Shown piece after piece: positions 7,852 to 39,140 of a DNA stretch of 64,000 nt (position 1 is its first letter; each line of letters starts with the position of its first letter). The stretch comes from Galaxea fascicularis (lineage: Eukaryota > Cnidaria > Anthozoa > Scleractinia > Euphylliidae), in assembly GCA_948470475.1 (NCBI GenBank), contig OX419338.1:13750572-13814571 (forward strand), read 5' to 3'. Under the pieces are notes generated by a model that was given only the letters and a program-made list of their open reading frames with translations, ran no database searches and was not told where the DNA came from. Made by a program: the position numbers and the translations under genes.

Positions 7852-8553
7852 TTAAGGTATTCCTGGAGGCTATTTTACGCATCTTTGTTTGAAATTGTTT
7901 GGAGCAATTTTCTAAGATATATTAAGCCAAAGTCTGTCATATTAACACCACTTAACAATCATTTCAAGTACTTTCTGTCAAAAATATTTTTTCTCAGAAA
8001 GAATTTAATGTATTTCTAGAATTTGACGCGTACGTGGGCGTGGTCGTAACCATGTCACATCACCCTTTCTTTAAAATCTTGAGTAAAATTTATCCATTGG
8101 GCATAACCTTTGGCCAAATGGTTCACATCAATATTCTCTACATGGCTTTGGCAGTGCGTCAGAATTAAGAAAAAACAGGATGTTTTAAGCTGCACAAACT
8201 GATTTCTTTCGTCCGTGAATTTCGTGGAGCCACCACCTGTCGTATATTTATGAAGAACTGACGCGCTGCCAAAGAACTATTCGTATATATGTTTACTTGA
8301 TATCCTCCAAGTTTGAAGTCTTTCTGTTAAAACCACACAAAGAAGTTACAACTAGTACAACTCTCCTCAAAATCTGTAGGCCATTTACGTCCGAAAATCA
8401 TCCGCAAATTGAAAAGAAATCAATTGAGAGACCAAATACTGAGCTGTGTTTGATGGCAGCCATCTTGTTTGAGTCTTCAATAATCATTTGCAGCGGTAAA
8501 TCGTACAATAGAGCTCTAAATATGGCATTTATGCCCTTTACGTGACCCCTATT

Positions 8554-8574
8554 TTTCCCGCGAAACCAATCAGA
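8554..8574 (+). promoter_or_regulatory. E2F-like site with adjoining CCAAT box upstream of the transposase
   Basis: TTTCCCGCGAAA at 8554-8565 matches the E2F consensus (TTTSSCGC). It runs directly into CCAATCA, about 145 bp upstream of the transposase ATG. The same pair, inverted, occurs upstream of the homologous gene in copy 2. Function is inferred from the consensus and its conservation. Confidence 0.55.
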
Positions 8575-8710
8575 TACGGCGATGGTAAACATTGACACCG
8601 TACCGTAGCAACGGCACCTCGAATGTCAGTGTTGACAGCTCGAAACCACATGTGGCGAGTGCGAAGAACATATCGGGTAAAGGAGGACAAAATACTGTGA
8701 ATATACTGAA

Positions 8711-11700
8711 ATGCCTAAAACGAAAGCGTCTAAAAGCAGGAAAAAAGCATCAGAAAAGGCTCACGAAGCCCGAGGTTATGGCTCGAAAGCGAGAATCCGT
8801 TTAGATTTTGAGAAGTTGAGAAACGAAGGATGGACAATTGAAGAACGGCAATCGACATCTGGCTCAGCAGTTCACTTCACCTACCGAAACCCCGATGGTA
8901 AAACTATGAAAAGTGCTAGAGAAGTTGAGCGTCAGTTAGAAGCTGAAGGAACTCTCCCCAGTTTCATTGTGGATGAAAGTAAAGGCAAAACGATGGAGAC
9001 TCCTCGACAAGCAGATGACTCGTTATCATCCGAGGACTCCGATTATGAGCCTCCTGAAAAACAAGCGCTAAAAGAAATGAGGGCCAGTAAATGGTAAGAT
9101 ATTACATGTATAAGTTCAATGTATAAAGTTGTAAGATAAGATCGGTAGCAAATGTTTAGCCCTTTATCAAGATTTCACATGTTGGGATCTGTGTGAGAGT
9201 AAACGTGACAAAATATTGAACGAAGACAAGATTTGTGCGTTCATGCGGTAAACATTGTGGAATCCTTGAGCAATAGGATTCAGTGTAGAAATTGGTCGTA
9301 TTTTTATGTCAGTTTCACTGACGATCTTTAACTTTGCTTTGTCTTCTTGCAGTTTTATTTATAATCAGTAACGCATGTTGCATATTACAACCGAAAAAAA
9401 ACTAAAACTGAATTCTTTGTGTGGAATTTACATGGAATACACTCAAGCTAGTGTGAAGAAAATATTCTTGAAGTAACATCCTGCTTTGATAATTTTTTAC
9501 AGTGTCAGTGTTCCAGAAGGGTTATTTGTTGCAACCACCTCTAGCATCGTCAATTTCGTCGATGAGATAAACAATTATTTCAAGTGTTCCTCAAACAATG
9601 GAAAATGTAGAGGTGAGATATAATCTGGAATTTAGTATGATGACAAAAGCAAGTTACATTTTGTAATTGTCGCAGTGATTATTATTATAAAGCCAAAGAC
9701 ATAGCCTTTTTCAATGGCTTTTTTTATTCTATTTTTCCACTTGATCAAGTGATAGACAAATTTTATGTACTATGTAGTGAGTCAGGCCTTTATAATGTAC
9801 CCTAATTGATGGGAGGGAATTGATGCCTGAAAAATATAACCAAAAGCCAATGAGTACCTGTCTGTAAAGTTGTGACCTTGCATTTTTATTTTGTTCATCT
9901 GTAAAAAAAATGGTCAATCAGGGATTGGCTTACAAAAGTAAAAAAGATTAGACTTGACTTGCATGAAAACCTTGTCCTTTTCACTGGTTTGCCAGAAATG
10001 TTGGTTTTTTTCTAGTTGAAAACCTTGTGGGATTTCACTCAGAATCCCTTCTTTTTATATTAATTTTTCTGCTTATACCTTTGAAACTCTTGTGCGGTGG
10101 TGTAATGCGTACATCTTTGGTTATTGTCCATGGTTGCTGGGGACCATGCCAAGAGAATATTGGCTGGTGGTCTTCCATGGTAAGACCAGAAATCTTTGTT
10201 GGGCCAGTATGTGTAACCTCGTTTTTTGCTAAATTTGTGTTACAGGCAAACTTGTACTCGCAGAGTATAGCAAGAAGGGTTGTGGAGGTGCAATGATGTT
10301 CACATTCAAGTGCCATGGTTGCTGGACTGTCACAATTGATTATAAGAGTAGCCATCTTGCCCAAGAATCTAGACGGCAACTTGTGTCCTTGGCCCTTTCC
10401 CTAGCCTTTTTTATTAGTGGGCATGGGTATGCCGGGTTTAGGAAGACCTTGGGAAGAGGGTTGGGGTTGGGAATAGTTTCAGAAAAGCCATATCTCGAAG
10501 TTGTAGATCTAGCCCTCCCCCACATTAAATTAATGCTGGACGAGATGTGCGATGAAGCAAAGGAGCACATGAAAGAAATTGCACCTGATCAAATAGGCAG
10601 CTGGTCAAGAGCAGTGACGTGCTGTGATGGGTGTTGGCTGATTAGAGGGCACTTTAGTCAAAATTGTACATTTGTGATTAAGAATTATATTACAGGTGCC
10701 CTTCTCTACTATGGTCATCTGTGTATGAGAGGAGCAGAAACTATCTGTGACGAGGAGCTGTGGCAAGGGACAGCTAAGGCAGCTGAGGGCCACCTCAGTC
10801 AAGTTCTTTGGGCCAAAGCTAAGGAGGAGGGGCTAAATGTTGAGGTCAATTGGCAGGATGCTGACTCATCCTCAGCCAAGGGGTTTCGCCAGTCTTACTC
10901 TAATGAGCAAGAGAGTAAAGTTATGTTGTGTGGAGGTTATGTTGGGAGGGCTCATGGTAAGAAGCTGGAGGAACTCAAGACTAAGTCTTCTTTTTCCTCT
11001 GCATTTATTGCCTTGCACAAGGAACAGTTTCCCAGCATTGTCTCAGCAAAATGTTGTTGTGCTGGGAAAAATCACACCTTTGTGGCAACCCGAAACAAAC
11101 CCGTTTGTGGATGTATTGGACCAGGGTTTATACAAAATGCAAAACGCAACCATTACTGTGCCCTTGTCCATGCGGGGAATAGCCCTGATAAGTATGGTGA
11201 AACTATGTTGACCCTGGGAAGATATCACAGTAAAGATATTCATGAATGGGAAGGGGGTTCCTGTACCTTTCACCCATTGCTTAAGTGTAGCTGCAAGAAT
11301 TGTGAAGCTGATGTTGATGGGTTTTACTCAGAGTTGAAATGTTCTGGTGAGGACTATCACTCGGCTCATGTCCTGACATGCGAATTTCATGCTCTTGCCT
11401 ACGAGATAGAGTGTACTCATAGGGCAAAGGATGCTGAGAAAGTCATTGACCCAGAGTTGGGAAAAGGTCATTCTAATCTCCCTGAGTCCACATTTAGTGT
11501 TCTCACCAAATTTCGGGCCAAGGACACAAATTTGCACATGAAGCACTACCATGCTGCAACAAATCTGGGGTTACTTCAGGCTAACATGACTTGGTGCCAC
11601 AAAACTAAAGGACCAGAGTACCACTGGATCCCAGAGCTGTACTCCCGAATGGGTCTACCTGTCCTTGATGGGATTCAGGAAATGGTATGTATTTTCTTAA

Positions 11701-12484
11701 TATGTAGTTTGTTGAATGGCTTTCTGTAATGAGGTATCTAAGGCAAGTTACACTCACCTTTCTTGGCAAGCTTATATGGGTTTTTGATGTCACCTGATCA
11801 TTACAATGAATGATTATATTAATTTATTACATTATAGTTGTCATTAATGATACAATTATTTTACTATTACAGTGTACAATCAATCATGTTACTGCATTAT
11901 AACTATTGGTATTGCTGTTGTTGTTGTTGTTCATTGGTTGATACAAGTCTATACTGAAAAAACTAATAGGGAAAAATAATTAATTATTAACACTAATATT
12001 TTTCATTTTATTGCCTTAACATTACAGTGTCAACATGACAACGAAACAAGGTACAAGAGGCTACAGCGCTACAAAACAGTAGATGCAAAGAGAAAAAGAG
12101 TTCAGAGGAAGGTCAACCGTGCTGAGGAGCAGAAGCTAAGGTAAGTTAAATTCAAGTTCACAAAGTCTTTATCAAGAAATATCAATAGCTTACAATGTTT
12201 ATCTCTGTTTTCTACTTAGGAAGAGATATGTCAAAAATTGCCGGATCCAGCATACATACGGAGAGGATGTTGAGGATGATCTGGTTGAAGAAGAAGCAGT
12301 ACTTCTTACTGAGTCTGCAATAAATGATGGAACTGCAACTGGTCTTGTCATACCTGACACAATTACACCAGCCCCTAATGGAGCAGTTGTTGAAGTTGGA
12401 GGGAAGAAGTGTAAATGGTGTGGAAGCAGTACCCACTCCCGTAAGAGCCACAAAGACTGCCCTTACAATAATTCGAGAGTTTAA
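8711..12484 (+). CDS. MBD-domain / Mutator-like (Kolobok-type) transposase, five exons, intact
   Basis: Exons 8711-9093, 9503-9612, 10246-11684, 12028-12140 and 12220-12484 join in phase with GT-AG introns to give 769 aa. Residues of about 28-80 form an MBD-like domain (GWTIEERQ, then YRNPDGK, then SAREVERQLEAEG). Residues of about 180-640 form a transposase of the Mutator-like type: CCDGCWLIRGHF (D292), NWQDADSSSAKGF (D371), VMLCGGYVGRAHGKKLEELK, and NLPESTF (E577). I infer these as the DDE triad by analogy with VDGTW, GDGDS and NES motifs of the family. A Cys-rich block near residue 430 and a C-terminal knuckle (CKWCGSSTHSRKSHKDC) are probable zinc sites. The protein should cut and join the GGTATTCC ends. 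MBD residues needed for methyl-CpG reading are only partly kept (R present, the usual FRS replaced by MKS). Exon structure and splice phases match copy 2. Confidence 0.9.
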
Positions 12485-13351
12485 GTTTTTCCCCCAGACT
12501 TGGGGATCTTTCGTTGTCATAAAACTAAAGGGATAAAACCCTTGTTATTGAAATAAGTGTATTTCACTGTTACATCACTTTTATCTGTTCTCATTGCACC
12601 AAAGGTCTTGAGATGCATAGGGCCTGAACATCCCTTTCAACAAGTTTATTTTTTTTTATAAATGAAGAGTTTTGTATTTGATGTATACTATAGTAGAATG
12701 AAATGCCTTAGCCACATATATCCATTTAAGGGCACATTTTCTTGATAGGATATTTTTACTTATCGTTTCAATTCTTGCCTTGCAAAAATCACTTTCTTTG
12801 AAAGACCATCAGTGATATTCAGAGTCAAGCATCAACATAGGTTGTATACATTTTCAGTCGTCTCTACGCTTGAGACAGTTTACATTGATAGCTTGTAATA
12901 TTTACATTTGACATGTTCTGATTGGTATTGTGATTAGTTGGGATAGGTTCCATGACATTCTATCAAAAATGTTCTACACTGGAATCCAATATTTTAACCT
13001 CCAAGGGAAACGAAAACTGGTTCCAAAAATTGGAAGGGTACAATTGCAGTGTTTGACTGAGACTGGGAGAGATTGGATTCCAATGTATTGTGATAAAATA
13101 AGAGTAGAGTAGACGTGTTTACACTTTGAAACATATTTATTTGAGTCAACTTTGAAAAATAAATAATATAAATAATATCCACCATTATATTTTGATGTCT
13201 CTGTTTATACAATTACAAATTTTCATATAAAGTAAAAATGATGAATTGTTACACTCATTCCTATATGCTCTTCAAAACATAAAAAAATAAATAAATACAC
13301 ATTTATTGTAACTGTAACATATGAAGGTTGCATTCTATTACTTGAATGAAC

Positions 13352-14559
13352 TTATTTGTCTCCTGGCCATTTGGCTTCATGTAAGTCTGACAGTGTGACT
13401 TTGTAGACCTGAAAATCAAAATAGATTCCACAAGATTATATAATACAGACCAGAAGAAGTGGTAGTAATAGGTTTTAGGATTCAAGGATGGGCTTCCAAA
13501 CACTCTTATAATGTGATATCAAACAATGGGAAAGGATATAAATATAAAGAACCAGTGACTTGGGTGTCTTTAGAAAACCAATAATCATAAGTTTTATGAC
13601 TACTTGAAACATGAATGGATGCAAAAAATTATTGAAAAGGAATCGTCTCTTGGGAAAAATGAGGCAGGGGCTTGGACTATTCAGATTGCGAAAAAATTCT
13701 TACCGATACAGTTTCAGGATTGGGATAATCCCGTACATCCCCATTTAGTATTTCCCTGATTGCCGCCTTGAGACAATCGGGGTACACATAGGTGGGAAGT
13801 GTCTTCCCTCGGAACTGACCAGCCCCAACTTTGTTTCCATACTGTTAAAAAGAAGTAAAAAGAAATATCAAAATAGACCTTTCCACGGTTTCTGACGCCA
13901 TGTTCACTGGGGGGCAAACACGATCAAAATTACAGGAAATGTATGGGACTTTGACAGACTTTGTACCGCCGTAATGCCGTCACCGAAAGTGGCGGATTTC
14001 CACAATAAAAATACTGCGATTATTTTCATGAAGTATAAGGAACAGATTCAGGCTACAACGGCCGTAAACGAAAGGGCTTTACATTGGGTACATCAGAATT
14101 TTCTGCACAGCAAAGGAAAGAAAATAATCGAAACGAACGAAAGCTATTTGCCAGGACTACGTGGTATGTTATGAGCGTATTCCACGTGGAAGAGCAGAAA
14201 ATAGCACAAGCAATATACGGTCTCAACAGTGGAAGGAAAACAAAGAAATATTTATCGAGAGACTGACAGGTAAAGTCTAAATCACTGATAAATTGAACTC
14301 TCTAATAGAACTTACCCATAAAATGCCAAAAATGCGGCGAAAAAATCGCCTTCTAGCCTGTTCATCGCTTTCCCCATTCTGCTGCTTGAAACCGCGAACA
14401 AGCCGCGCAAGTCCTGAAGGACTTCCCTGAAAACTAATTACCAAACATATTTAGTTAACCAAACCAGGTAAAAGGAAATCACAGAAAACCAATCAAATAT
14501 ATTTACCCGTTCTCCCTGAAAGCGACATTTAGCTCTTGCACTGCACGTTCTGCCGCCAT
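13352..14559 (-). CDS. Small accessory protein of the TTAA element, four exons, 121 aa
   Basis: On the minus strand, exons 14559-14507, 14433-14316, 13841-13704 and 13408-13352 join in phase with GT-AG introns into 121 codons plus stop. The product begins MAAERAVQELNVAF, has an arginine-rich middle (ARRRFFRRIFGILW), a FRGKTLPTYVYPDC block and ends HEAKWPGDK. It has no membrane segment or signal peptide, and I do not recognise a domain. The homologous gene in copy 2 has the same lengths for exons 2-4 (118, 138 and 57 bases) and diverged but colinear residues, which shows that the model is real and under some constraint. It converges on the transposase gene. A DNA-binding or regulatory partner of the transposase is a guess based on its basic centre. 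Confidence 0.85.
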
Positions 14560-14681
14560 GATCAAAGAGGATGTTGCGTGTCGGATGGCAAGGTTTTATT
14601 GCAACGAGCTGTCAACAAGACCATCCTTAGGGAGTTCCAAATCAAGATAATGATGTTTTGGACGCTGCATGGTGTCTTATT

Positions 14682-14693
14682 TTTCCCGCGAAA
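14682..14693 (-). promoter_or_regulatory. E2F-like site upstream of the accessory gene, copy 1
   Basis: TTTCCCGCGAAA lies about 122 bp upstream of the accessory gene ATG at 14559. It is identical to the twelve-base core upstream of the transposase at the other end of the same element. Confidence 0.5.
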
Positions 14694-14849
14694 TCAGCCC
14701 TAGAAGCAAAAGTTTCCTCGCCTATATCTTAGCGACTTTTTCTCCTCTCGACCCGAAAATGCGTGCGAGGTCCTGTCGACATTACCTTTTGAGCTGTGAA
14801 AAATTATGACAATCCAAAATAGTCACTCTAGCCTCCAGGAATACCTTAA

Positions 14850-17215: not shown

Positions 17216-17560
17216 GTTCCTTACGGTATCCGTTCGAACAGCTGAACGCACGGCAAGTGAACGGATAAGAAACGGGTCTACAAACCGTTCAAAACGGATA
17301 CATGGAACGGCTGAACGGCTCAAGAAAATTTTTGAATGGATGAGGTCAAATGGCTGAACGGATAAGGTCGAACGACTGAACGGATGATGAAAAATTTTGA
17401 ACGGATGAGGTCGAACGGCTGAACGGCTGAGGAAAATTTTTGAACGGATGAGGTCCAACATCTGAACGGATGATGAAACATTTTGAACGGATGAGGAAAA
17501 TTTGTGAACGGCCAAGGTCGAATGGCTGAACGGCTTTAGTTTGTTTTCGAACGGCTGAAT
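17216..17560. repeat. Left subterminal GAACGG array
   Basis: More than fifteen copies of a core GAACGG, mostly as GGCTGAACGG or GAACGGATGA and separated by GTC or AAAATTTT spacers. They are direct and irregular. The same core dominates the right end of the element in inverted context. Confidence 0.85.
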
Positions 17561-17639
17561 AACAGCATACGATATTTTAATTAGTTAACAATGAATAACA
17601 GCAAGGTCAAGTTATGGTTATTATCTGAGAACTGATTGA
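17561..17639. other. Short spacer
   Basis: AT-rich link between the subterminal array and the 349 bp duplication; no gene. Confidence 0.4.
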
Positions 17640-18338
17640 ATCAAAAACCTCGAATTAAACTAATACTGTGTTGAATGTCTAAGCTTTTTTAAGAGAAAAG
17701 CAAATTCGTTTTCGCCGGACAAAAATCAAAATCCGCGTTTACTCGCAAAATAAAGTTATGCAAACATCTTGACAATGCGTATTTACATTTAGCGTAACGC
17801 AATGACTCCCGGAATGACTTGATAAACTCGCTCGTCTAAACACCACAAAGCGCCAATAATTCTCAATGCCTTGATTTTGAGCAAAATATTTTTTTTCATT
17901 TGAGTAAACAAAGAAGCGGGCGCTTAGTTGTCGACCGCGTTGATTTTGCTACAACGCACATAAAGTTAAATGAACCCAGGACTGAAACATCAAAAACCTC
18001 GAATTAAACTAATACTGTGTTGAATGTCTAAGCTTTTTAAGAGAAAAGCAAATTCGTTTTCGCCGGACAAAAACCAAAATCCGCGTTTACTCGCAAAATA
18101 AAGTTATGCAAACATCTTGACAATGCATATTTACATTTAGCGTAACGCAATGACTCCCGGAATGACTTGATAAACTCGCTCGTCTAAACACCACAAAGCG
18201 CCAATAATTCTCGATGCCTTGATTTTGAGCAAAATATTTTTTTTCATTTGAGTAAACAAAGAAGCGGGCGCTTAGTTGACGACCGCGTTGATTTTGCTAC
18301 AACGCACATAAAGTTAAATGAACCCAGGACTGAAACAT
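17640..18338 (+). repeat. Tandem duplication, two copies of a 349 bp unit
   Basis: The block starting AAAACCTCGAATTAAAC at 17644 recurs at 17993 with only a few substitutions (for example TTGTCGACC against TTGACGACC near the end). The near identity indicates a recent local duplication. No open frame crosses it meaningfully. Confidence 0.9.
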
Positions 18339-18391
18339 CAAAATATTCAGCCACTGAAGGGACAGTTTCACCCATTCCTGGTGTTACTTTA

Positions 18392-19594
18392 CAGTATTGT
18401 GCAAAAGTAATGCAAGCGAAATGCGCGAAATTCGTTCTTTGTTCCCGCGACTTTTCGACGAAAGTTCGAGTGAAATTTCACGGTGTATCGAGCGATAATT
18501 CGCTTAAACAAAAGACGATTTTTCTTCGAAGTTTCGTTAAGCTAAAGAAAATTCGTGAGCAAAAACGATAATTCGCAGGCAGTTCACGAAATTTCGCACC
18601 GCATTGAATGGCAGTTCCGGAGCGTTCAAGCAATTTTCTTTCAGCAGCTGATATGAACAAACTGTCTTGCAACTCACAAGAGATAAATTTGCAAATAGGT
18701 GCCGAGTTGTGTTTACGGTGAAATTCACAACTCGGATTTCTACTGTCAAAATCCGAGTTGTGAATTTGGCGGTAAACACAACTCCGATTTTTGGCGTAGA
18801 AATCCGAGTTGTAAATTTGGCAGTGAACACAACTCGCATATTTTGACAGTAGAAATCCGAGTTGCAAATTTCAGGGTAAACACAACTCGGATTTTGATGC
18901 AGAAATCCGAGTTGTACGTTTTGCTATTACAATATATGTAATGACGTCCTATATGAGCCACGGTAGATTCATTCATAAAAAGAAAGCACGAACTCGTCTT
19001 TTTGTATATTTTATGTCTGAATGAAACATAGGGGGCCCAGACATTGAATACGATGTGACATTAGGCTGTTGGCGATTGTGCTTCAATTTTAGCCGTACAG
19101 TTAAGACAATGTTTGGGAATGCTTTGAAAATTGTTCTAAATGCCACGTGTAGAAAATAATTTAAATAAAAGTACAACCAGGTGAGTTTCATAGCTAACAT
19201 TTCATCGAGCTGTGATGCTATTTCGGCAGATTAATGGCTTCTTTCATGCTCAATAATTGGAAAGGTTATTTATATATTTCACTCGGTGAACTTTGTTTCG
19301 AAAACGCTCTTGGCCTATCGATTAACAATAGATCGAATTTTCGGGAGGAGCGAATTATCCTTCGAAAAATCGCAGCGACTTTTCGGCAGGAGCGAATTAT
19401 CACTCGAAAATTTGCTGTGATTTATCGCGCAAACCGAATTATCGTTTGAAAAATCGCGCGGATCAAAACAATAGGTGTCACGAAAATGCGGGGAAATTTC
19501 GTTGAAATATCGTATCGAGCGAAATTTCTTCGAAAAGCCCCGAAAAGCCAGGAATTTCGTCGAAATTCGTTTGCATTACTTTTGCACAATACTG
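18392..19594. mobile_element. Tc1/mariner-type MITE, 1.2 kb
   Basis: The left end CAGTATTGTGCAAAAGTAAT and the inverted right end agree over about 29 bases with one mismatch. TA flanks both sides (18390-18391 and 19595-19596). CAGT termini with a TA duplication are the hallmark of Tc1/mariner elements. No transposase frame is present, so it is non-autonomous. It lies 170 bp upstream of the DUF7869-like gene start. The interior holds repeated GCGAATTATC-type motifs near 19340-19450 and the inverted array at 18700-18925. Confidence 0.85.
18700..18925. repeat. Alternating inverted minisatellite (CCGAGTTGTG core)
   Basis: Within the MITE, the motif AAATCCGAGTTGTGAATTT alternates with its inverted form AAACACAACTCGGATTT about every 55-60 bases, for roughly four rounds. 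The single strand could fold into a chain of hairpins. Confidence 0.85.
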
Positions 19595-19766
19595 TAGCAC
19601 TGAATTCAGGCTACACGGCATAAAGCAACCCTCCGAAAAGAGCCGTAAATGCATGTGATAATCCACACCATTCCGGTTGACTGATTCTGAAATGCATTGC
19701 CTTGGTTACTACTAGACAACTACTGTCATAATCTCATCAAATATTCTAAAATCACACAATCACAAA

Positions 19767-21520
19767 ATGGAGGAATCAACGAGAGACGAAATCGATCTTA
19801 ATCAAACTGAAAATAAGGAAAGTATCATCGCTAAAGTACAAAAGTTTATGCAAGATGGGTGCGGATGTCGTCGAGGATTAAAAAGTGGTCAGTGTTCTGA
19901 TCAATTCACGGAGGAAACCATTCTAAATAATGTAGACAACTGCTTGGAACTGACTCATGCTGAACTGGACCTGGTTATTTTAGCGAACATTCAAGCTTTT
20001 ACAGTGATTGAAGTTACCGGAGAAAAAAGAAAAAGAAGTCCACCTTACAGCTTTCTTCATCAGTCTCAGCCAATCTGTAAGGAGATGTTTCTCAACCTCT
20101 ACGGAATCAGCAAATCACGGTTTCAGCGGCTTGTAGAACATTACCAAAGTCACGGTATTTCTCTGCGGATACACGGGAACAGCAAGAGACTACCGCATAA
20201 CGTGCTACCACTTGCCGTTAACGAAGATGTCAAAAACTTTCTGAGCAACTATGCAGATGAAAATGCTGTACTGCTTCCAGGAAGGATCCCTGGCTTTAAA
20301 AACGAGGACATTCAGCTACTCTCATCGAGTGACAGTAAAACGCACGTGTGGAAGTCGTTTAACAAAGTCTGCAAAGAATCAAACAAGCAAGCTGTAAGTT
20401 ACACGAAATTTACCGACTTGTGGAAGCGATTTCATCCAAACGTCGTCGTGGCCAAGCCGATGACAGACTTATGCTTCACGTGTCAGCAAAACACCTCAAA
20501 GTTACTTCGGGCAGCCAATCTTCCAGAGTCAGAAAAGTCTGAATGCGTTCAAGCACAACAACAGCATTTAAATTCAGTGCAGACAGAAAGAGAACTTTAC
20601 AGAAAGGTTTGCGAAGAGGCTAAACGCAGCTTTGAAGCAGTGGAAGACCAAATAGACCTTGATAAGTGTCACAAATCGTGCTCGCTGACAACTACAATGC
20701 ACTACTCATTTGACTTTGCTCAGCAAGTACATATCCCAAGCAACCCCATGCAACCCGGGCCAATTTACTTCAAAACTCCATGCAAATGTGCTATTTTTGG
20801 AGTTATGTGCGAGGCGATCCCTCGCCAGGTGAACTACCTGATCGATGAAGCCAGTGATGTCGGCAAAGGGGCAAACACAACTATAAGTTATATCCACCAT
20901 TATTTCGAACATCACGGACTTGGTGAAACTTCTGTTCATCTTCATGCCGATAATTGTCGGGTCAAAACAAAAACAATTATTTTATATGGTACTTGGCCTG
21001 GAGGACAATACTTCAACTTCATCATTCTATTAAATATTCATTTCTCATTGCTGGACACACGAAGTTTGGACCGGATCGATGTTTTGGTATCATCAAGAGA
21101 TCCTTCAAACTGAACTACATATCGTCAATATATGAATTTGCTAATATGGTGGAGTCGTCAAGCACTGGAGTTAACAAAGCACAGCTTGTTGGCACACACG
21201 ATGGAACAGTTATCGTCCCGGTCTACGAATGGTCTTCATTTCTTGAACAATTCTTCAAAAGAGTACCAAATATCAAGAACTATCACCACTTTAGATTTTC
21301 AAAGGATGAGCCAGGTATAGTTTATTTTAAAGAGAGTGGCTCGTCTCAAGAACAGTCCATGATGCTGTTAAAACATCGCGGAATCCTTCCCCCAACCGCA
21401 CGACTTCCAGCCAAACTGAATCCAGCAGGGTTGAGCCAAGAACGACAGCAGTACCTCTACCGTGAGATACGACAGTTTTGTAAGCCTGGGACAGAACATC
21501 TGGTTGCACCAGGTCCATGA
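19767..21520 (+). pseudogene. DUF7869-like transposase candidate, one frameshift
   Basis: The frame opens at an ATG at 19767 (CACAAAATGGAGG) and runs to about 20957. There it reads HADNC and shifts, because one base appears missing in the TGT-CGG stretch. The continuation SGQNKNNYFIWYLAWRT is in the next frame and stops at 21520. The combined length is about 585 aa. Features are a Cys-rich N terminus (GCGCRRGLKSGQC), a CFTCQQN pair with a coiled-coil-like segment, SFDFAQQVHIPSNPMQPGPIYF, NYLIDEASDVGKGAN, HLHADNC, and AGHTKFGPDRCFG. This motif order matches what I recall as the DUF7869 family, widespread in cnidarians and insects. Acidic residues in SFDF and HADN are plausible catalytic positions of a DDE-type fold (inference). 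A sequencing error could explain the single missing base. Confidence 0.75.
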
Positions 21521-21782
21521 ATGCTCTCTTAGTACTCTTGCCTATAAGCAGTTTATTTTTAGAAACCTCAATTTTTCATCTTTTTACTTAGTTGTGACAG
21601 TTTTGTTCTTCCAGTTGTATTACAATGATTAATTATGAAAGCGACGCATCTATACCAAAGATAAAAGATGTAAATAAACTAGACAGTTAGCTCTCAGTTG
21701 AATTTGAAGTCTTTTGTTGTTTACCACGGTGAATTCGCCCTGATTTGGATGTCTTTTACCCCAAAAAAATACTTGTCATCGC

Positions 21783-23050
21783 ACTAACTGTCCCACATTG
21801 CGAGATCATTTCAAAGTCAACAAACTCGGTCTGATTTTATTTCGATCTTTTTTCGATTTTATGCTTTCAGTGTGCGTGACACGAGATAAAGCAAAGGAAA
21901 GGCCGTCATTGTTACTAAATGTCCCACATATTTACAAAATCATTTCAAAGTCAACGCACTCGTTCAGTTTTTTTTTTCGTTTAAATGCTTTCAGTGCGCG
22001 CGACAAAATAAAGCAAAGGAAAGGCCTCCATTGTTACTAACTGTCCCACAATTGCGAGATCATTTCAAAGTCAACGCACTCGGTCAATTTTATGCTTACA
22101 GTGCGCGTGACACGAGGTAAAGCAAAGGAAACGCTGCCAATGTTACTAAGTGTCCTGAATTGCGAAATAATTTCAAAGTCAATGCACTCGTTCAAACTTT
22201 TTTTTTTTATTGCTTTCGCTTTAATGCTGTCAGTGTGCGCGGCACAAAATTAAGCAAAGGAAAGGCCTCCATTGTTACTAACTGTCCCACAATTGCGAGA
22301 TCATTTCAAAGTCAACGCACTCGGTCAATTTTATGCTTACAGTGCGCGTGACACGAGGTAAAGCAAAGGAAACGCTGCCAATGTTACTAAGTGTCCCGAA
22401 TTGCGAAATAATTTCAAAGTCAATGCACTCGTTCAAACTTTTTTTTTATTGCTTTCGCTTTAATGCTGTCAGTGTGCGCGGCACAAAATTAAGCAAAGGA
22501 AAAGCCGCCAAAATCATATCAAAGTCAACGCACTCTGTTAGTTTTTTTTTTGCGATTTTTTTTGCTGTTATGCTCACAGTGCGCGCGACACAAAATTAGC
22601 GAAGGAAAGGCCGCCATTGTTACTAAATGTGCTGTTATGCTTTCAGCGCGCGCAACACAAAATGAAGCAAAGGAAAGGCCACCATTGTTATTAACTGTCC
22701 CACATATTTACGAAATCATTTCAAAGTCAATGCACTCGTTCAGTTTTTTTTTTTCACTTAAATGCTTTCAGTGCGCGCGACACAAAATTAAAAAAAGGAA
22801 AGGCCACCATTGTTACTAACTGTCCCACATTGCGAGATCATTTCAAAGTTAACGCACTCGGTAAGAATTTATTTCGATCTTTTTCGCTTTCGTGCTTTTA
22901 GTGCGCGCGACACGAAGTTAAGCAAAGGAAAGGCCGCCATTGTTACTAACTGTCCAACATTGCAAAATCATATCAAAGTCAACGCACTCGATCAGACTCT
23001 TTTCCTTCTTTTTCGTTTTTCAGCTTTTAAAGTGCGTGCGACACAAAATC
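21783..23050 (+). repeat. Satellite-like array of about ten degenerate 115-130 bp units
   Basis: Each unit contains CATTTCAAAGTCAACGCACT, a T-rich run, a CAGTGCGCGCGACAC block, AAGCAAAGGAAAGGC and TTGTTACTAACTGTCCCACA. Units vary in length because of T-runs and internal deletions. It follows the 3' end of the DUF7869-like gene. Short open frames in it are by-products of the repeat. Confidence 0.9.
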
Positions 23051-23239
23051 TTTCCAGGTCATTACAAGTTAGTCTTTTATATTTGATTACGGCGTATTTA
23101 TTTCTTCCCCTAATTACATCATTTGACATTATGAAACTAAGTCTTGTACTGCAACGAACCCTAACTGAAACTAGAATACAATAACAACTAGACACTAAGA
23201 AGCAATATTCTTCGAGCTTAAACGTATACATGAAATTGA

Positions 23240-26200: not shown

Positions 26201-26757
26201 TACGGCTGGATTCATTTTGAAACAGCTTAGTTTCGTAAAGTTTTAGTTTCTCAAGTAGCAAACTCGAACAAAGTACTAGATTTGGATTTGTGGAATGCTA
26301 TGATCACACAACGGAATGACTTGACTTAAGGCGATCTGGCCATGAAACGAAATGAACGTTCAAGCAATATCCTCTATGAAGCACTATTTTGTAAATTTGT
26401 GTCGAGACAGTATAGAATGTTAACACTTGCTTACATTTTTGGCGCGTGGCACTTTTTTTGGAGGCTCGATGGCAGGCTCAGCAACTGTAGCCACTTCTTC
26501 AGTGTTCTCCGACTCTGGGACCATAGCAGCAGGTAAATGTTGTTTTGACCACTCTAAATCTTTAGCGTTAAGAACGTTCACATTATCTACAAGGAAAACG
26601 TGTATGTCCTTTAGTGATGGTAATAAGTGAATCGAAACTGAAGAATAGTGCGAATAAATACAACATAAATTTAAAAATTGACCAATCCAGACTTACCATC
26701 GAGAGCTAGGATCTCCGCTGCAACTATTTCTCCATCCCAGTTGACAGTTACCACCAT
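23240..26757 (-). CDS. BEN-domain protein, five exons, 398 aa
   Basis: Minus-strand exons 26757-26697, 26586-26435, 24888-24574, 24320-24186 and 23773-23240 join in phase with GT-AG introns and no internal stop. The protein begins MVVTVNWDGEIVAAEILALD. Residues 72-221 are charged and coiled-coil-like (EKFLAEQKKRNSEWKSEREA, and LRNKLESIEAANARI). Residues of about 311-387 form a BEN domain (LLPHFFSREELAESN, LDSTKLNSL, FTKFP, AWRFIKGKINSQCRATRK). BEN domains bind DNA or mediate protein contacts in chromatin factors. The gene lies within the 11 kb element and converges on the transposase candidate. It may therefore be an accessory factor of the element or a captured host gene. The start was chosen because the ATG gives a clean first exon with a consensus donor. 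Confidence 0.85.
24925..25652 (+). repeat. Tandem repeat, about 3.4 copies of a 214 bp unit
   Basis: CACTCTTTCTCTAAAT recurs at 24925, 25139, 25354 and 25568, giving spacings of 214, 215 and 214. The last copy is truncated near 25652. It lies inside the long second intron of the BEN-domain gene and is nearly identical between copies. Confidence 0.9.
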
Positions 26758-27918
26758 TTTCAGCGATTATACGAGTTGGTGCGATTCCGGTTTTTAACTC
26801 TTGCACGAAGTAAAACAATGCATTTGATGGACGCTTGCTCTGTTTACACAACTGTCTGATAGACATGATCTCTGATGGCAAGCAATGGCAAGTGATAAAG
26901 AGCGACGGTACGACTAGTGTGCAAATTGTTCGCTACTTTGAGCCATTTTATACAGTTTAATAGCATTGGGCGGATCGAAATTCCACAGTTTTAATTGGAC
27001 AAATGTTTTCAAATTAGCATATGAATTGTTCACACGACTTTGTGTTTGCATCTGTAATGAGTGGATATAAAAGAGAAAATAATTTTCTTCGTTGAGCTTT
27101 TTCAAATTGTATAAAGATTAGCGGTTGTTCAAAGTTGGCTGTGTTAATAGTGGATCGTGAACACTTAAAAAACAACAACTAAAGTGCTGGTTATCACGAG
27201 ACCAACAACAAAGCATTTTTGCGATATTTTGTAAATTGAGTTTTTTCACGCAGTTCATTCACGTGTGCGCAAGTTAGTGATAATGTAATGAATGCGCTTG
27301 TCCTTTTTCCACATGATCAATTATGATATCGACAGACTTTGAACTTGTGAGCTTTTTTCGGCACGACTCAAATCACGCTTAAATCAGTGCATAATTAAAG
27401 ACAAACACCGCCTTACAATAACATAACTTGTGAGTGCCAAAGCGGATGTGCGAAACACACAACTTTGTTAAGCCGCCGTGAGGTTCGATTTCAAATCTCT
27501 GCCGTGTCAAAACAATTTTTTCCCGGGAAAAGAGAAACGGTGAATGAAGATGATGGCCGTAAAGACCTCTTCTGCACAGCCGGAAAAATGTCTGCGTTCG
27601 CACTGTATTTTTTCACATGCAGGCTACGAGCAAGCCGACAGCCTTTTCCCACGGGAGATTGTTTATTTAAACAGACGCCTTGAATACTGTGAGCGAGATC
27701 AGAACATGTACGGGAAACTTGTTGAAAAGGCTACTGTGCATCGATAATCGAATATTACAAAAGCAAAGATGAATATAAGCTAAGGAGCAGGGAAATAACC
27801 GTCACTATTCATGAGATGGTGAATGTAAACACCAAGTAATGCTTACAAACTCCGTGATGTTTAGCAAGTTGCTCGTTAGAACTGGACCAATTTTGTTGAC
27901 AGATGACATTTTGTTATT
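26758..27918. other. Non-coding right part of the 11 kb element
   Basis: This is the presumed 5' region of the BEN-domain gene followed by AT-rich sequence. An open frame of 67 codons at 27544-27747 has no recognised domain. No RNA gene was seen. Confidence 0.45.
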
Positions 27919-28262: not shown

Positions 28263-28304
28263 TTCGAGTGAGAGGTCACATATGGGATCGTTTAACCTAG
28301 TTCC

Positions 28305-31973: not shown

Positions 31974-32234
31974 TTCACGGCTCACATTGAAGTCAAAAAT
32001 TGCGTTCACGCGCACGGGTTTAGGTTCCATAAAAACGACCTTCCTATTCTGGCAGAGGTTTTAGAGATCGCTGACCAGTTCATCTTGGAACAAAGAAGCG
32101 TTGTGTTTAAATTCAACCCTTCCGATCTTTGCAAGTTGAATGAAATAATCATAAACATTGGAACAATTCTTGTGGTAAAACCTCATGAACAAAGAGCTTT
32201 CTTCGAGGCATTTAGAAAGTACAATGTAGTTTAA
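31974..32234 (+). other. Possible terminal exon ending at the TTAA insertion site
   Basis: After a possible acceptor (CGTTTAATTCAG), a frame of about 86 codons runs without a stop (HGFRFHKNDLPILAEVLEIA, later LNEIIINIGTILVVKPHEQR) to a TAA that overlaps the TTAA flanking the second element. Amino-acid composition looks protein-like, and the RFHKNDLP stretch vaguely recalls the start of some Harbinger-type proteins. I could not find upstream exons. Because the TTAA is duplicated from the target, the stop existed before the insertion. Confidence 0.35.
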
Positions 32235-32389
32235 GGTATTCCTGGAGGATGCGGTGACCTTTTGCAGTCGTGCTGTAATTCCCATATCTTAAAGATTATA
32301 ACTAGAGAAATCTCCCTGCCAAGTTTTATGAATGAAGGACTTTCCGTTTGGAAGATAAAAGCAAGAGAAGTTTGGTTTCCAAGGAACAA

Positions 32390-32402
32390 TTTCGCGGCAA
32401 AA
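32390..32402 (+). promoter_or_regulatory. E2F-like site upstream of the accessory gene, copy 2
   Basis: TTTCGCGGCAAAA lies about 121 bp upstream of the ATG at 32523. That is nearly the same distance as the TTTCCCGCGAAA site in copy 1 (122 bp). It is one core base away from the copy 1 version. Confidence 0.45.
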
Positions 32403-32522
32403 TCGAGGCATGATACCGCATTTAGAGGTGTTTGTGGCTGGTGTAGAGATTGTCACACCTACCTTGTTGACAGATCCATCAAGCAAAATCTCTGGACAGA
32501 GCAACATGAAACCATCTTCTCC

Positions 32523-33752
32523 ATGGACTCTCGCCGTGAAAGTGTGCTTGATGTGCTCGACTCTGCTTTCGAAGAACACGGGTAAATAAGTATTTTTTCA
32601 GCTGAGTTCTCTTTTACATCACATTGAAAGGATAGCCGTACACAACTGATGCTGTTTTGCCTTGTAGTTTCCACTGTACGCCTCCCGGACTGAAAAGCCT
32701 GCTTCAGCAATTTGGGAAAAATCCGGGAGAAAGTGCGGAAAGGGCTCAAAAGCGCTTCTACAGACGTTTATTTGGAATCCTGTGGGTAAGAATCTGCCTT
32801 TGGTTGTTTGTTTTGATAGATAAACTTCAGTGCTGTCCTTTTATTCATTGTTCCAGCCCATCCCAATTGCGTTTGTGAGATTCCCCACTACCATGCGGTA
32901 TGAAGTTTAGAAAAGGTGGCACAAGGCCGATAGTCTATTTCTATTGTTGCTTTCTCAAAAATGCACTGCAGAATAGTGGAGTTTCATCGAAATGATGGAA
33001 GAAAAAGAAACTTTTGTGACATAATTGAAACGTCAAATGATATCTGGAAAAAAATTGAGTTTTCCATCACCAATTTGAACTCATGGTGTCAATTTGTCTA
33101 TTTTTTCTCAACAGTTTGGAAACCACGTGGGAAGGGGCAGGTTTCGGGGGAAAAGTCTCCCCACTTACGTCTACCCTGAGTGTGTGAAAACCGTAATCCA
33201 GGAGATTCTCGAAGATAACGTGAGGGATTACCAGGATCCGCATGGGCAAATGGTAGGTGTGACCTATCACGTAACTAGTTGAGTTACAATCACAGGGGCC
33301 AGTTATTCCGGTTCAAATTCAAATCCCTAGTTTAAAATGTTATCCCCACCACTCCATTTGATAGTTATAAAGAGGAAGAATATACAGTTATCCAAAGTGG
33401 ACTCACAGTAATAACTAGACGATATATGTTAGTGCAATTTTTGGGCAGTGATTCCAACCACTCAGAGGAAACAAGCGAGTCTTACTTGTGGCCAGATATA
33501 CACATTGCAACTTGATAAATATCTGCCCTGTGCTTCAGTCTGGAGGGATAGACTTCTAAAAGGGATGAAACTATAGTGAGAATGTGTTTTGTGACATCAT
33601 GCAAATGTGGGTGTACATTTTTCATTTCAAAGCTGACATCACTTTGCACTTGCAAAGCAATCATTTTTTGATTATGCTTATTTCTTTCTCCCAAGGTTTA
33701 TCAAGTGACAGTCAGAGACCTTGCTGAAGCAAAGTGGCCAGCCACGCATTGA
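32523..33752 (+). CDS. Small accessory protein of the TTAA element, four exons, 123 aa, intact
   Basis: Exons 32523-32581, 32668-32785, 33115-33252 and 33696-33752 join in phase with GT-AG introns. The product begins MDSRRESVLDVLDSAFEEHG, continues AQKRFYRRLFGILW and FRGKSLPTYVYPEC, and ends LAEAKWPATH. Exons 2-4 have exactly the lengths seen in copy 1 (118, 138 and 57), and every residue block aligns without gaps apart from two extra residues at the N terminus. The gene is open although the transposase in the same element is dead. This could mean recent decay, mobilisation in trans, or a role of its own. The function is unknown. Confidence 0.85.
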
Positions 33753-34399
33753 AAGTTTAATTTCTTGTTAGTGAGTGAGAGAATGTTGTGATAGCCAAAC
33801 AAATAATTAAAATAATGCCTGTCATTTCAATCAAAAACTCCCTTGTGCAAAGTAGAAAAGAGTAATATTTAATTAAACAAACACATAAAAGTCCAGGTGT
33901 CATTTTTAGTTCGATGACTGGAAACAATTACCTATATATTTATATCTCTTACTATATAACAATGAGGTGTAATAATTCAGCCAGTTCTAGTAATGCAAGA
34001 TGTAAGTAATAAATTATATAAGAAATAAATTGACTTTGAAGTGTAAACATGACTATTTTCTTGTTTTTGAATTTTAGTTGCATTGCTACAACTTGTATGG
34101 AAATAGTTTCAATATTTTGAGAAAAGGCTATTTCTCTACCGGACTGTTACTGTCAGAAATCTAGTAAGCTACTGTTTGCAGTAACTAAAAAACAGTACAG
34201 TTTAACACATAACCTGCCATTTTCTGTGTCACAAATATTTACAGATCCAAAATACCCCAAGCTAGGAATCTTGCAAAAACCAAGACATGCAATATCAAAA
34301 TGACCAAGCACAGCATCCATAACATCTTGCTTCAGAAAAGCCAAACAAATTACAATATTATTGCCAAAACTGTTCTGACATGACTGGCATAAAAATATT

Positions 34400-37300
34400 T
34401 TATGTGGAAGTGGTGACATTCCTTGGATTGTGGGGGCAGTCTTTGTGCGTTTTGCGGCTATGTGTGGAACTACCACACCATTTACATTTCTTGCCCCCTA
34501 GAGTCACAACAGCACTTTCTGGTGCACTGACAACATCACATGAAGAAGCTTCAGGTACATTGTTACTGGCCACTCCTTCGCAAACAGCATTGTTTGCCAC
34601 TAAGACTGCCTCTTCTTCCAAAAGGTTTGAGTCGTCCTCTTCATCTCCATATGTGTGCCTTATCTGACAATTCCTTACATATTTCTTTCTAAGAGACAAA
34701 GAAATGTGTGTAACTATATTGTAATGGGTCATTTTCAAGTTCATGTCTGCCTCTTCTTCAAAAAGTTGTTCTTAAAGTTCTGAAGTTGTTGTTATGAAAT
34801 TTAGTTTTCATTGATATGTACAGAACTGTAAAACAGACCTAAAATTTTCACACACTCGCTTTAATAAAGGTTGAAGTGAAATTGGAAAACCATCAATACA
34901 AGCATACATGTAAAAGATAAAGATGGACGTTGTCAGAGTAAAGATGAACCATGAAGAACTATGCAGAGGTCTTAGTCTCTCACAGCATTGTCTTACTTCT
35001 GTACCAAAAACCACTACACCTTATGGTTATTTACCTTAATTCTTGCTCCTCAGCTCGGTTTATTTTTCTCTGAACTCGCTTCCTTTTTCCTACATCGGTC
35101 TTGTAACGCTCCTGTCGTTTCATCCTTTCCTCATTGTCATGTTGGCACTAGATTTAAAAAAAAAAACAACAAATACATCCAACTATAGACCATCTCCATT
35201 TGTACAATGCTATTCTAGCCCTTTCCTTTGAAACGTGTAAGTCTTCCTTCTTTCCTTTTACACTAACAAATGTACATGTAATTCTACATAGTAAAGCGCA
35301 AAAAATAAGTAAAATTTATGAACACAGAAACAACTGATGACATTTGTCTTGTATTTTCCTGTATTTTTTCATGGTGTTGGAATGTTTTCAATGGCTGACA
35401 CCAATTTCATATACATACCACCTGTCCAAAACAACCAAATACCTTTCTCTTATAAATTGACAAAAATTTTTTTTACATACGATCTCCTGAATTCCACTCA
35501 ATACTGGAAGGCCCATCCTTGAATACAGGTCAATGATCCAGTGGTACTCTGGTCCTCGTACTTTAAATAGCCATGTCATATTTGCCTGAATGAGCCCCAG
35601 ATTGGTAGAGGCTTGGTAATGCTTTTGATGCAGGTTTGTATCCTTGGCCCTGAATTTTGTTAGAACACTAAAGGTGGACTCTGGCAAATTGGAGTGCTCC
35701 TTACCCATTTCTGGGTCAATCACACTCTCTGCATTTTTTGCCCTCTCAGCACACTCTATCTCATAAGCAAGCCCATGAAGCTCACATTTCAAGGGGTGAG
35801 CAGAGTGATATGGCTGTCCCTGGCACTTCATGTCTGGGTAAAACCCATTTTCATTGGCATCACACTCCTTGCATGAACACTTTTGCAGGGGATGAAAAGA
35901 ACAGCAGCCTCCTTCCCATTCATGAATGTCCCTGCTGTGGTATTTGCCCAGTGTCAGCATAGTCTCTCTGTACTTATAAGGACTATTGCCAGCCTGAACT
36001 AGTGCACAATAGTGGTTCCGCTTGGCATTTTGGATAAATCCAGGCCCAATACAACCACATACAGGTTTGTTCCTTGTAGCAACAAAAGTATGCTTTTTGC
36101 CAGCACAACAGCATTTCACTGATTCAATAGCAGGAAATTTTGACTTGTGCAAGGAAATAAATGCTGATGTAAATGATGACATTCCCTTTAACTCCTCTAG
36201 CTTTTTCCCATGTGCCCTTCTTACATGCCCCCCACACAGCATAACCTTAGATTCCTGTTCATTGGAAAATGAATATCTAAACCCTTTAGCTGATGAAGAG
36301 TCTGCACCCTGCCAATTGATTGCAACATTTAGGCCTTCTTCTTTGCCTGAGCCCAAACCTTTTGACTAAGATGGCCTTCAGCTGACTTAGCAGTACCTTG
36401 CCATAAATCTTCATCGCAAATCCTGTCTGCACCTCGCTTTGACAGGTGCCCATAATAGAGAAGGGCACTTGTAATATAATTTTTAATAACAAAGGTGCAA
36501 TTTTGACTAAAATGTCCCCTTATTAGCCAGCAACCATCACAGCATGTTACAGCTCTGGATCAGCTACCTATTTGATCAGACGAGAGCTGTTTCATTTGAT
36601 TCTTGGCATCATCACACATTTCATCTAGCAGATCTTTGATGTGTGAAAGAGCAAGGTCAATCACTTCCAAGAAGGGTTTTTCTGAGGTAATGCCTAAGTC
36701 CAACCCCCTTCCCAGGGTTTTCCAATAACCTGCATAGCCATGCCCACTTGTAAAAAAAAGCAAGGGAAAAGGCCAAGGACACTATTTGCCTCCTTGAGTT
36801 TAGGGCAAGATCACTGCTTTTGTAATCAATCTCTGTTGTCCAACAGCCACAGCACTTAAAATTGAATTTCATGGCCCCTCCGTATCCCTTCTTTTCACAC
36901 GCAGCAAGGACCAGCTTTCCTATAACGTAACAGTAACAATAAGAAGAGTACAATGACAGGGTTGAGGTGCATGAGGATTATTACTAGTCCCAATGAGATT
37001 TTTGATTTATGGAAAATTCACCATTACCAAAAAAAAAAGTTTCTTCCATTGGTTACAATTTTCAAGTATTTTTCATATTTTCACAGCATTCTCTCATGGT
37101 TATACGTGATGCATAGCTGTAGTATTGTCATTTATGAGCTTTGTAGCCATACCTTGAGTAGTTTCACTCATCTAGAAACATGCGTGGTCAAGTGTTCAAC
37201 ATGGAGTGAAAATATTACAATAACACCCACCAAAATTTAGTGAAAAATACTCATTTAAATCTGAATTACCTTTACATTTTCCACTATTTGAAGGACATTT

Positions 37301-38200
37301 GAAAAATCCATTGCAATCTTGCACAAACTGCACAGTGGGGGAGGTAGTTCCAACAAATAACCCTTCCAAAATGCTGATACTAAAGACCAGAAAACAATGA
37401 AAAACTGTGAACCTATGATTGAAAAATGGAGTCCATCAACAGCGATAAACTAGATACATACACAAACCAGAAGATGCACACTACTCTGAGTACAATATAG
37501 ATAAAATAATACTAGAATGAACATAATAATGTGCATTTTGTATTTGTAAATGTCCAGTTTTGCATTGTCTTTGACAATGAGACGCTTCTGAGAGCAGACA
37601 CAAACTTAGAAAAAGACGAACTGTATATCTTGGAAGCACATGAAAAAACTTCAAAACTCAAAGGTGTCTGAACTACATAACTTATTCAGTTTGATGACAC
37701 CTTCCCAAAATCACCGACATGAGAAGCTAACAACTTTTTAACGTGTGAGCCTCAAAGAAAAGTATTTCAAGATAAGACTTACCCGGCCGATACAAATATA
37801 ACCAACAAAGTTTTAGAAAGACAGCATTCACTGCAATATTATCCACTCACCCAGATTTGCGAAGATCCTCGCAAGCTTTTTGCTTCATCGGTGGTTCGTA
37901 CTCCTCATCAGATTCCTTCCCGGCTGAGCATTTGCCACTTTCAACCAATTCAACATTGTCTTTACATTCTTTGAGAAAGTGGCACAAAGTTCCCTCAGCC
38001 TCTAGCCTTTGCTCTACATCTTTCGCACTGTTGAATTTCTGGCCCTCAGGCTCGATGAAGGAGAGATGGACTCTGTCACCAGATTTACGTGAAACGATCG
38101 TCCATCCAGCCCCCTCGAGTTTAGAAATATCCACCCTCATTCGCGAACCACTGCCAGAGCCTCGAGTTTCGTGAAGACTGTTTGACCAGCTGGCCGCCAT
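34400..38200 (-). pseudogene. MBD / Mutator-like transposase of copy 2, disrupted
   Basis: Minus-strand exons 38200-37851, 37270-37379 (read downward), 36919-35481, 35147-35035 and 34688-34400 match the five exons of the copy 1 gene. Lengths of 110, 1439 and 113 are identical for exons 2-4. The first exon carries the MBD-like domain (GWTIVSRKSGDRVHLSF, EPEGQKFNSAKDVEQRL). The last exon carries the CKWCGSSTHSRKTHKDC knuckle. Exon 3 has an extra base in a run of eight T (forward 36749-36756), a stop where copy 1 has a tryptophan (GSW, tgg to tga, at 36562-36560), and a one-base loss near 36345. Homopolymer error could explain one of these lesions but not all three. The rest is open through NLPESTF and GIQEI. 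Confidence 0.88.
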
Positions 38201-38423
38201 AAATAAACCTCTCTCTTTTCAATAGATATAAATTTCTCTCTATTCAATAAATAAATACATCTTTCTCTTTGATAAATAAATCTCTCTGAATCTTTTTCGC
38301 TCTTACCACAATGTTCAACCACAGTATTTGCGCAACAGGCGTCGGATGTCGAGCGCCTGTCAACATACGCCGATAATGGGCAAGCGAGGTGTCGTTGCTA
38401 AGTGAGGCGTTAGCTTGCCTAAT

Positions 38424-38441
38424 GATTGGTTTCGCGGGAAA
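38424..38441 (-). promoter_or_regulatory. E2F-like site with CCAAT box upstream of the transposase, copy 2
   Basis: The forward strand reads GATTGGTTTCGCGGGAAA. On the coding strand this is TTTCCCGCGAAACCAATC, the same E2F-plus-CCAAT arrangement as at 8554 in copy 1, about 230 bp upstream of the ATG at 38200. Surrounding bases differ, so the block stands out as conserved. Confidence 0.5.
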
Positions 38442-39140
38442 AATAGGACATACAAATATGGTCAATTTAGCCATATTGGGAGGAATATTTTGCGTTTAAC
38501 CGCTGATTTTGACTATTGTGGATACAGGAAATATGGCTGCCATCGAACTTCGATAACATTATGTTGTATGAGCAGATTTCTGATATTTATGGCCGATTTA
38601 CAGACCAAAATAGCTAATAAAGTCCAAGATGGGGGCACATTTACGAATATTATTCTGTGGAGATTCATCGTTAACAATTGAAACTTGGCAGGGCTCAACT
38701 GCATGGGAAGACAAAACTTTGCACCGCAGTCCCCACTACAGAGTGGAATAGCTTGCAATTTGGGGGAAGTCAAACTTTTGAAGGTAAAATTTGTTACTTT
38801 TTGCCATTACAGAATAAGAAACCAAAACAGGAATTGGGACTGCAGTGAAAAGTTAGTTTTTTTCCATTTTAACTGTGTTCCAAATGTCAGAGCTAAGTTA
38901 TAACTGTTTATTTAGTTATAATTTTTTTTTGTAAAATTGCTTGTAAATGAGCACACCCTAGAATTTTTCTAATTTTTTACATTCCTTAAATATTTCCAAA
39001 AGGATTTTATTTTTACCAGATTCCTTGAGAGTCATTTAATAAGTGGTGTTAAAATGAGTTCAGTATCTTAAATGTATCTTTAAAAAAAACCCTCCAATAC
39101 AGCCCAAAAATGACCAAATTAGCCTCCAGGAATACCTTAA

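What the first reader, a model, noticed from the sequence alone, without database searches (positions are those of the whole stretch)
7852..14849. Complete two-gene TTAA transposon with an MBD-transposase
Seen: TTAA duplications, matching GGTATTCCTGGAGGCTA ends, and two fully open spliced genes. Known: Kolobok elements use TTAA targets and a Mutator-like DDE transposase, but the ones I know carry THAP-type fingers, not an MBD. Inference: this is a lineage whose transposase may be steered by or to methylated or CpG-containing chromatin. It could still be active.
Basis: partly seen in the sequence, partly recalled or inferred. Interest (0 to 1): 0.88.

Follow-up and report, generated by a model that had tools for sequence, protein, structure and literature searches.

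The report
TTAA jumping gene with MBD-like domain
This is a complete, recently mobile animal jumping gene whose cutting enzyme appears to carry an MBD-shaped DNA-binding piece, but most of the residues that would let that piece read DNA methylation are missing.

Summary
Window 7852-14849 is a complete TTAA-flanked element with perfect 17-bp inverted ends and two spliced genes facing each other: a 769-aa transposase (five exons) and a 121-aa second protein (four exons). A diverged sister (copy B, 32231-39140) shares the terminal 14 bases, exon layout and both genes; synonymous sites are near saturation while both proteins are conserved. The window's own genome holds another full-length copy, 99.8% identical, at another TTAA site with both genes open: recent movement. 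The N-terminus looks like an MBD domain (Pfam near its cut-off in both copies; a rough model's leading fold matches are MBD or TAM domains). Of four MeCP2 methyl-CpG contacts (recalled), three are replaced in both copies and the fourth is lost in A, ambiguous in B; the ends hold no CpG. Methylation targeting is therefore not supported; binding to the element's own ends is likelier. TTAA and GG...CC ends fit the Kolobok superfamily, but catalytic homology could not be tested, and the second protein matched nothing convincing. Copy A has Tyr where B and the 99.8% copy have the putative signature His. New variant of a known kind.

The parts
7852..7855 (.). Left TTAA target-site duplication of copy A
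7856..7872 (+). Left 17-bp terminal inverted repeat, copy A
8448..8572 (+). The only non-coding block, apart from the terminal 36 bases, that blastn aligns with copy B; holds TTTCCCGCGAAACCAATCA (E2F-like site and CCAAT box; names recalled), likely transposase promoter
   Evidence: 71% identity over 128 columns, alignment, positions
8711..9093 (+). Transposase exon 1, with the MBD-like domain (about aa 28-82)
9503..9612 (+). Transposase exon 2
10246..11684 (+). Transposase exon 3, putative catalytic exon; candidate residues in CCDGCW, DADSSS and NLPEST, signature CGGY (CGGH in B and in the 99.8% copy); Cys/His-rich insert
   Evidence: catalytic assignment is by recalled motif, not by a database match
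12028..12140 (+). Transposase exon 4
12220..12484 (+). Transposase exon 5, ends in a Cys/His cluster CKWCGSSTHSRKSHKDC
13352..13408 (-). ORF2 exon 4
13704..13841 (-). ORF2 exon 3
14316..14433 (-). ORF2 exon 2
14507..14559 (-). ORF2 exon 1 (121-aa second protein)
14682..14693 (+). TTTCCCGCGAAA near the right end, upstream of ORF2; copy B has TTTGCCGCGAAA at nearly the same distance from its end
14829..14845 (-). Right 17-bp terminal inverted repeat, copy A
14846..14849 (.). Right TTAA target-site duplication of copy A
32231..39140 (-). Copy B: diverged sister element, opposite orientation, TTAA on both sides, first 14 bases of both ends identical to copy A's
37851..38200 (-). Copy B transposase exon 1 with MBD-like domain
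37270..37379 (-). Copy B transposase exon 2
35481..36919 (-). Copy B transposase exon 3: same length as in A, but with a stop codon and a stretch out of frame; broken
35035..35147 (-). Copy B transposase exon 4
34412..34688 (-). Copy B transposase exon 5 (3' end approximate)
32523..33752 (+). Copy B ORF2, four exons 32523-32581, 32668-32785, 33115-33252, 33696-33752; open, 123 aa, 54% identical to A's

Best explanation
An autonomous cut-and-paste DNA transposon of a Kolobok-like, TTAA-targeting lineage. The 769-aa transposase most likely recognises the element's ends through its N-terminal MBD-fold domain (the Xenopus Kolobok transposases use THAP for DNA binding) and perhaps its C-terminal Cys/His cluster, cuts and joins with a DDE core in exon 3, and inserts into TTAA. 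The 121-aa protein from the facing gene is a conserved accessory factor. Shown: complete element, TTAA duplication, shared ends, conserved gene structure, selection on both proteins, and a 99.8% identical full-length copy at another TTAA site. Inferred: DDE chemistry, end binding by the MBD fold, accessory role, membership in Kolobok.
For: TTAA and 17-bp inverted ends. Copy B: same 14 terminal bases, same exon lengths for 6 of the 6 inner exons compared (transposase 2-4, ORF2 2-4) and same phases. Selection: pS 0.75-1.03 in seven of eight compared blocks (0.59 in exon 2), against pN 0.13 in exon 3, 0.42 in exon 1 as a whole, 0.34 in the MBD domain, 0.29 in ORF2; bootstrap pN/pS 0.13-0.20, 0.42-0.71, 0.30-0.65, 0.25-0.47. 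Recent movement: L005 holds a 7000-bp copy with 12 substitutions and one 2-nt indel against A, TTAA both sides, other flanks in the 40 or so bases printed, both genes open, ORF2 identical. MBD fold: Pfam MBD in both copies; the first 26 of the 50 Foldseek rows shown (635 matches at E 10 or better) and the first 33 of the 50 VIA-align rows shown are MBD or TAM domains. TTAA and RR...YY ends are Kolobok's as stated in PMC9587614 (Background section read).
Confidence: 0.7

Rival explanations
1. The MBD-like domain reads methylated or CpG-rich chromatin and steers insertion or excision.
For: MBD-like fold. CpG-normal ends and CpG-poor body in A suggest that the body is or was methylated. A CpG-containing 12-mer (one-mismatch form at one of four sites) lies 153-156 bases from the ORF2-side end and 696-699 from the transposase-side end in copies A and B, in the same orientation.
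Against: Three of four mCpG contact residues (roles recalled) differ in both copies, the fourth is lost in A and ambiguous in B; the loop after SG is 3 residues shorter than in MeCP2 in this alignment. The 17-bp ends hold no CpG. B's transposase-side end is itself CpG-poor (0.22 in its first 500 bases).
Confidence: 0.1
2. It belongs to the Kol0 lineage of Kolobok, and the second gene is a diverged KolX protein.
For: Kol0 elements encode a transposase and KolX, and occur in vertebrates, annelids, cnidarians and sponges (PMC9587614, sections 3, 12, 16 read). By eye, FFRRIFG...YPDCLKAAIREIL in ORF2 recalls the end of P2X7's ballast; [quoted passage not shown]
Against: Profile comparison of ORF2 (2 sequences) with P2X7 ballasts (3 sequences) found nothing (probability 0.1%); no P2X7 match in the PDB and Pfam searches with ORF2; ORF2 of A has one Cys, not the seven of the ballast.
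Confidence: 0.15
3. A distinct TTAA superfamily outside Kolobok that converged on TTAA and GG ends.
For: No Pfam or NCBIfam DDE model matches exon 3; MBD-like N-terminus; unrecognised second protein.
Against: CGGH in B and the 99.8% copy fits the C/DxxH signature that PMC9587614 gives for Kolobok, hAT, P, MuDR and Dada (placement by eye); TTAA and RR...YY ends fit Kolobok.
Confidence: 0.2
4. The TTTCCCGCGAAA sites are subterminal binding sites of the transposase rather than promoter sites.
For: One near each end in copies A and B, nearly same distance and orientation.
Against: On the transposase side it continues into a CCAAT box, and each of the four sites lies 120-230 bases upstream of a start codon, which fits an E2F-type promoter (motif names recalled). 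One of the four has a mismatch, two other one-mismatch places exist in the window (27519, 33142), and the visible 1580 bases of L007 hold no CCCGCG at all.
Confidence: 0.2

Closest known systems
Kolobok superfamily (Kol0 lineage in particular)
   Same: TTAA duplication, RR...YY ends, a transposase plus a second gene, C/DxxH-like motif, Cys/His clusters
   Different: MBD-like N-terminus and no THAP found; second protein not recognisable as KolX; catalytic homology not tested
KolobokP / KolobokD / KolobokE / KolobokH
   Same: Kolobok lineages marked by an accessory protein, in KolobokP on the complementary strand
   Different: No nuclease or helicase domain in the Pfam scans; no long terminal direct repeats in the blastn of A against the window
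piggyBac
   Same: TTAA duplication
   Different: Ends GGTA, not CC[C/T]T (as given in PMC2872659, passages); no piggyBac domain in the Pfam scans
MBD / TAM domain proteins (MBD1-4, MeCP2, BAZ2A/B, SETDB2)
   Same: Predicted fold, and scaffold residues W104, S113, G114, P127, G129, S134 of MeCP2
   Different: Methyl-CpG contacts mostly not kept; shorter loop

Membership tests
Kolobok superfamily | TTAA target-site duplication | tested here: met
   Copies A, B and the 99.8% copy
Kolobok superfamily | 5'-RR ... YY-3' ends | tested here: met
   GG ... CC in A, B and the 99.8% copy
Kolobok superfamily | Homologous DDE catalytic core | tested here: inconclusive
   No relevant Pfam, NCBIfam or PDB match; model failed; Repbase not available
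Kolobok superfamily | C/DxxH signature | tested here: inconclusive
   CGGH in B and the 99.8% copy, CGGY in A; placement by eye
Kolobok superfamily | Zinc finger between C/DxxH and E | tested here: inconclusive
   Cys/His clusters conserved in A and B, no finger model matched
Xenopus-type Kolobok transposase | THAP domain | tested here: not met
   No THAP in the Pfam scan of the whole protein at E up to 1; MBD-like domain at the N-terminus
Kol0 lineage | KolX accessory protein (P2X7-ballast fold) | tested here: inconclusive
   No match, all with shallow profiles or single sequences
piggyBac | CC[C/T]T ends | tested here: not met
   GGTA ends
Methyl-CpG-reading MBD | MBD fold | tested here: inconclusive
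   Pfam around its cut-off, rough model matching MBDs first at weak scores
Methyl-CpG-reading MBD | Two arginine fingers, Asp and Tyr contacts (recalled from MeCP2) | tested here: not met
   A: S, H, T, K; B: gap (or R by another alignment), H, S, N

The most novel reading that the evidence does not exclude
A separate TTAA transposon lineage that uses an MBD fold that does not read methylation to recognise its own ends, with a previously undescribed conserved partner protein and cell-cycle-type promoters. Transposons would then be one possible route by which MBD/TAM-type DNA-binding domains enter or leave host genomes.
Probability: 0.38. Interest if true: 0.65.

Novelty: new variant of a known kind. 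Interest (0 to 1): 0.5.

Why it matters
An MBD fold as the DNA-binding part of a recently mobile transposase would widen the known set of transposase targeting domains. Two long-diverged copies that keep both proteins point to a second protein worth testing, and a 99.8% identical full-length pair makes the family a good candidate for an activity test.

Tried and rejected
Rejected: methyl-CpG steering as the default reading (contact residues and CpG-free ends). Not accepted for lack of evidence: KolX identity of ORF2. Led nowhere: viral contigs with the exon 3 protein (1 stretch matched a pattern, 0 confirmed), with copy B's piece (0 of 7 confirmed) and with the 18-mer (0 matches); genome contigs (0 of 19 confirmed); NCBIfam and PDB with exon 3; the fold of exon 3 (pLDDT 33; no fold search was made with it). 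No MBD was listed in the PDB profile search. Absences from the VIA-align list are not used. L003, L006 and L007 are partly withheld (5000 of 7901 bases of L006, 5950 of 7901 of L007) and were read only where visible.

Paper searches: Kolobok with TTAA (5 papers), MBD/transposase/Kolobok (30 of 148 listed), cnidarian Kolobok, domesticated transposase with methyl-CpG-binding domain, KolX/P2X7 (15 of 43), KolobokE/coral and others (20 of 75), MBD domain/TAM/transposase (15 of 268), Kolobok with Nematostella, Kolobok with THAP. No title or abstract start listed there describes an MBD-bearing Kolobok; the unlisted papers and all supplements were not seen. 'mbd' occurs 0 times in the main texts of PMC9587614 and PMC6004289. 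Seen of papers: PMC9587614 outline, abstract, sections 3, 9, 10, 12, 16 and passages; PMC6004289, PMC2872659, PMC7016195 and PMC8616336 passages only; all others, listings only. Repbase is not held, so 'undescribed' is not claimed outside the section on the most novel reading.

Full report
Observation. The element spans 7852-14849 with TTAA on both sides and 17-bp perfect inverted ends GGTATTCCTGGAGGCTA. The 18-mer TTAAGGTATTCCTGGAGG has four matches in the 64-kb window at up to 4 mismatches, all exact and at element ends. The transposase model joins five exons into 769 aa. The second gene, on the minus strand, joins four exons into 121 aa; earlier splice models for it were wrong.

Copy B. The other two ends belong to a second element at 32231-39140, inverted relative to A. 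blastn aligns it with A at 74% over 1458 columns of the catalytic exon and in five shorter blocks. Transposase exons 2-4 and ORF2 exons 2-4 have the same lengths as in A. Transposase identity is 0.46 in exon 1, 0.58 in exon 2, 0.73-0.80 in three pieces of exon 3, 0.76 and 0.59 in exons 4 and 5; ORF2 is 0.56 (54% over the whole alignment). Synonymous differences are at or near saturation while replacement differences are fewer, so both genes stayed under selection over a long divergence; exon 1 is the least constrained (pN/pS 0.42-0.71; its MBD-like part 0.30-0.65). B's transposase is broken by a stop codon and a stretch out of frame; its ORF2 is open.

Recent movement. The left 101 bases of A found 4 places in the 416.6-Mb genome, A included: the others at 100%, 98% and 89% (counts there are lower bounds). 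The 100% place (L005) is a full 7000-bp copy with 12 substitutions and one 2-nt indel against A, TTAA on both sides and different flanks in the bases printed. Both its genes are open; the transposases differ at 5 of 769 residues and ORF2 at none. One difference is residue 396: Tyr in A, His in the other copy, as in B, at the putative C/DxxH signature. Another, residue 756, is Arg in A and Cys in the other copy and lies in the C-terminal Cys/His cluster, so neither copy can be called the functional form. L006 and L007 are mostly withheld; the visible 1580 bases of L007 encode a relative of the MBD exon that lacks five residues including the GW, a decayed copy. Later genome searches did not complete.

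Composition and promoters. CpG observed/expected is 0.2-0.5 through the body of A and 0.8-1.2 in its first 1500 and last 990 bases; in B it is 0.22 in the first 500 bases, 0.7-1.1 in the next 1000, 0.04-0.5 in the body and 0.63-0.66 in the last 900. TTTCCCGCGAAA lies 699 bases from A's left end and 153 from its right end; B has it at 696 and a one-mismatch form at 156, all in the same orientation relative to the transposase. Three exact matches stand against 0.006 expected; two more one-mismatch places lie at 27519 and 33142, and L007's visible part has none. On the transposase side the site runs into CCAATCA in A and B. E2F-like and CCAAT are recalled names; the promoter reading is inference.

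Classification. TTAA and RR...YY ends fit Kolobok as defined in PMC9587614 (Background read), and not piggyBac's CC[C/T]T (PMC2872659, passages). Kolobok transposases usually carry DDE, THAP and H2CH motifs according to PMC6004289 (passages); no THAP was found here. The catalytic exon matched no relevant Pfam, NCBIfam or PDB family, so membership in Kolobok is likely but untested. The second protein matched nothing convincing.

Noticed in passing
40192-58653: Tandem array with a period of about 3826 bp, about five copies, alignments at 98.3-99.6% identity. A 206-aa frame recurs four times and a 130-aa frame five times in it; one of each was scanned and matches no Pfam family.
   Followed up: partly
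58854-64000: A second array with a 3000-bp period, 100% identical over the 2147 bases compared, related to the first at about 95%; it runs to the window end.
   Followed up: no
28296-29369: Open frame of 357 aa with a DDE_Tnp_4 transposase domain, Pfam E 6.8e-27; Harbinger-type is recalled.
   Followed up: partly
23240-23938: Open frame with a BEN domain, Pfam E 3.4e-7.
   Followed up: no
19716-21113: 465-aa open frame that looks transposon-like by eye but matches no Pfam family at E 0.01.
   Followed up: no
8554, 14682, 32390, 38430: CpG-containing E2F-like 12-mer (one mismatch at 32390) at nearly the same distances from both ends of copies A and B; absent from the visible part of L007.
   Followed up: partly
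8146-8162 and 8258-8274: 17-nt inverted repeat, 94% complementary, in the non-coding part upstream of the transposase of copy A.
   Followed up: no
17312-28223: Eleven rows of tandem repeats with periods of 43-348 bp, some describing the same array.
   Followed up: no
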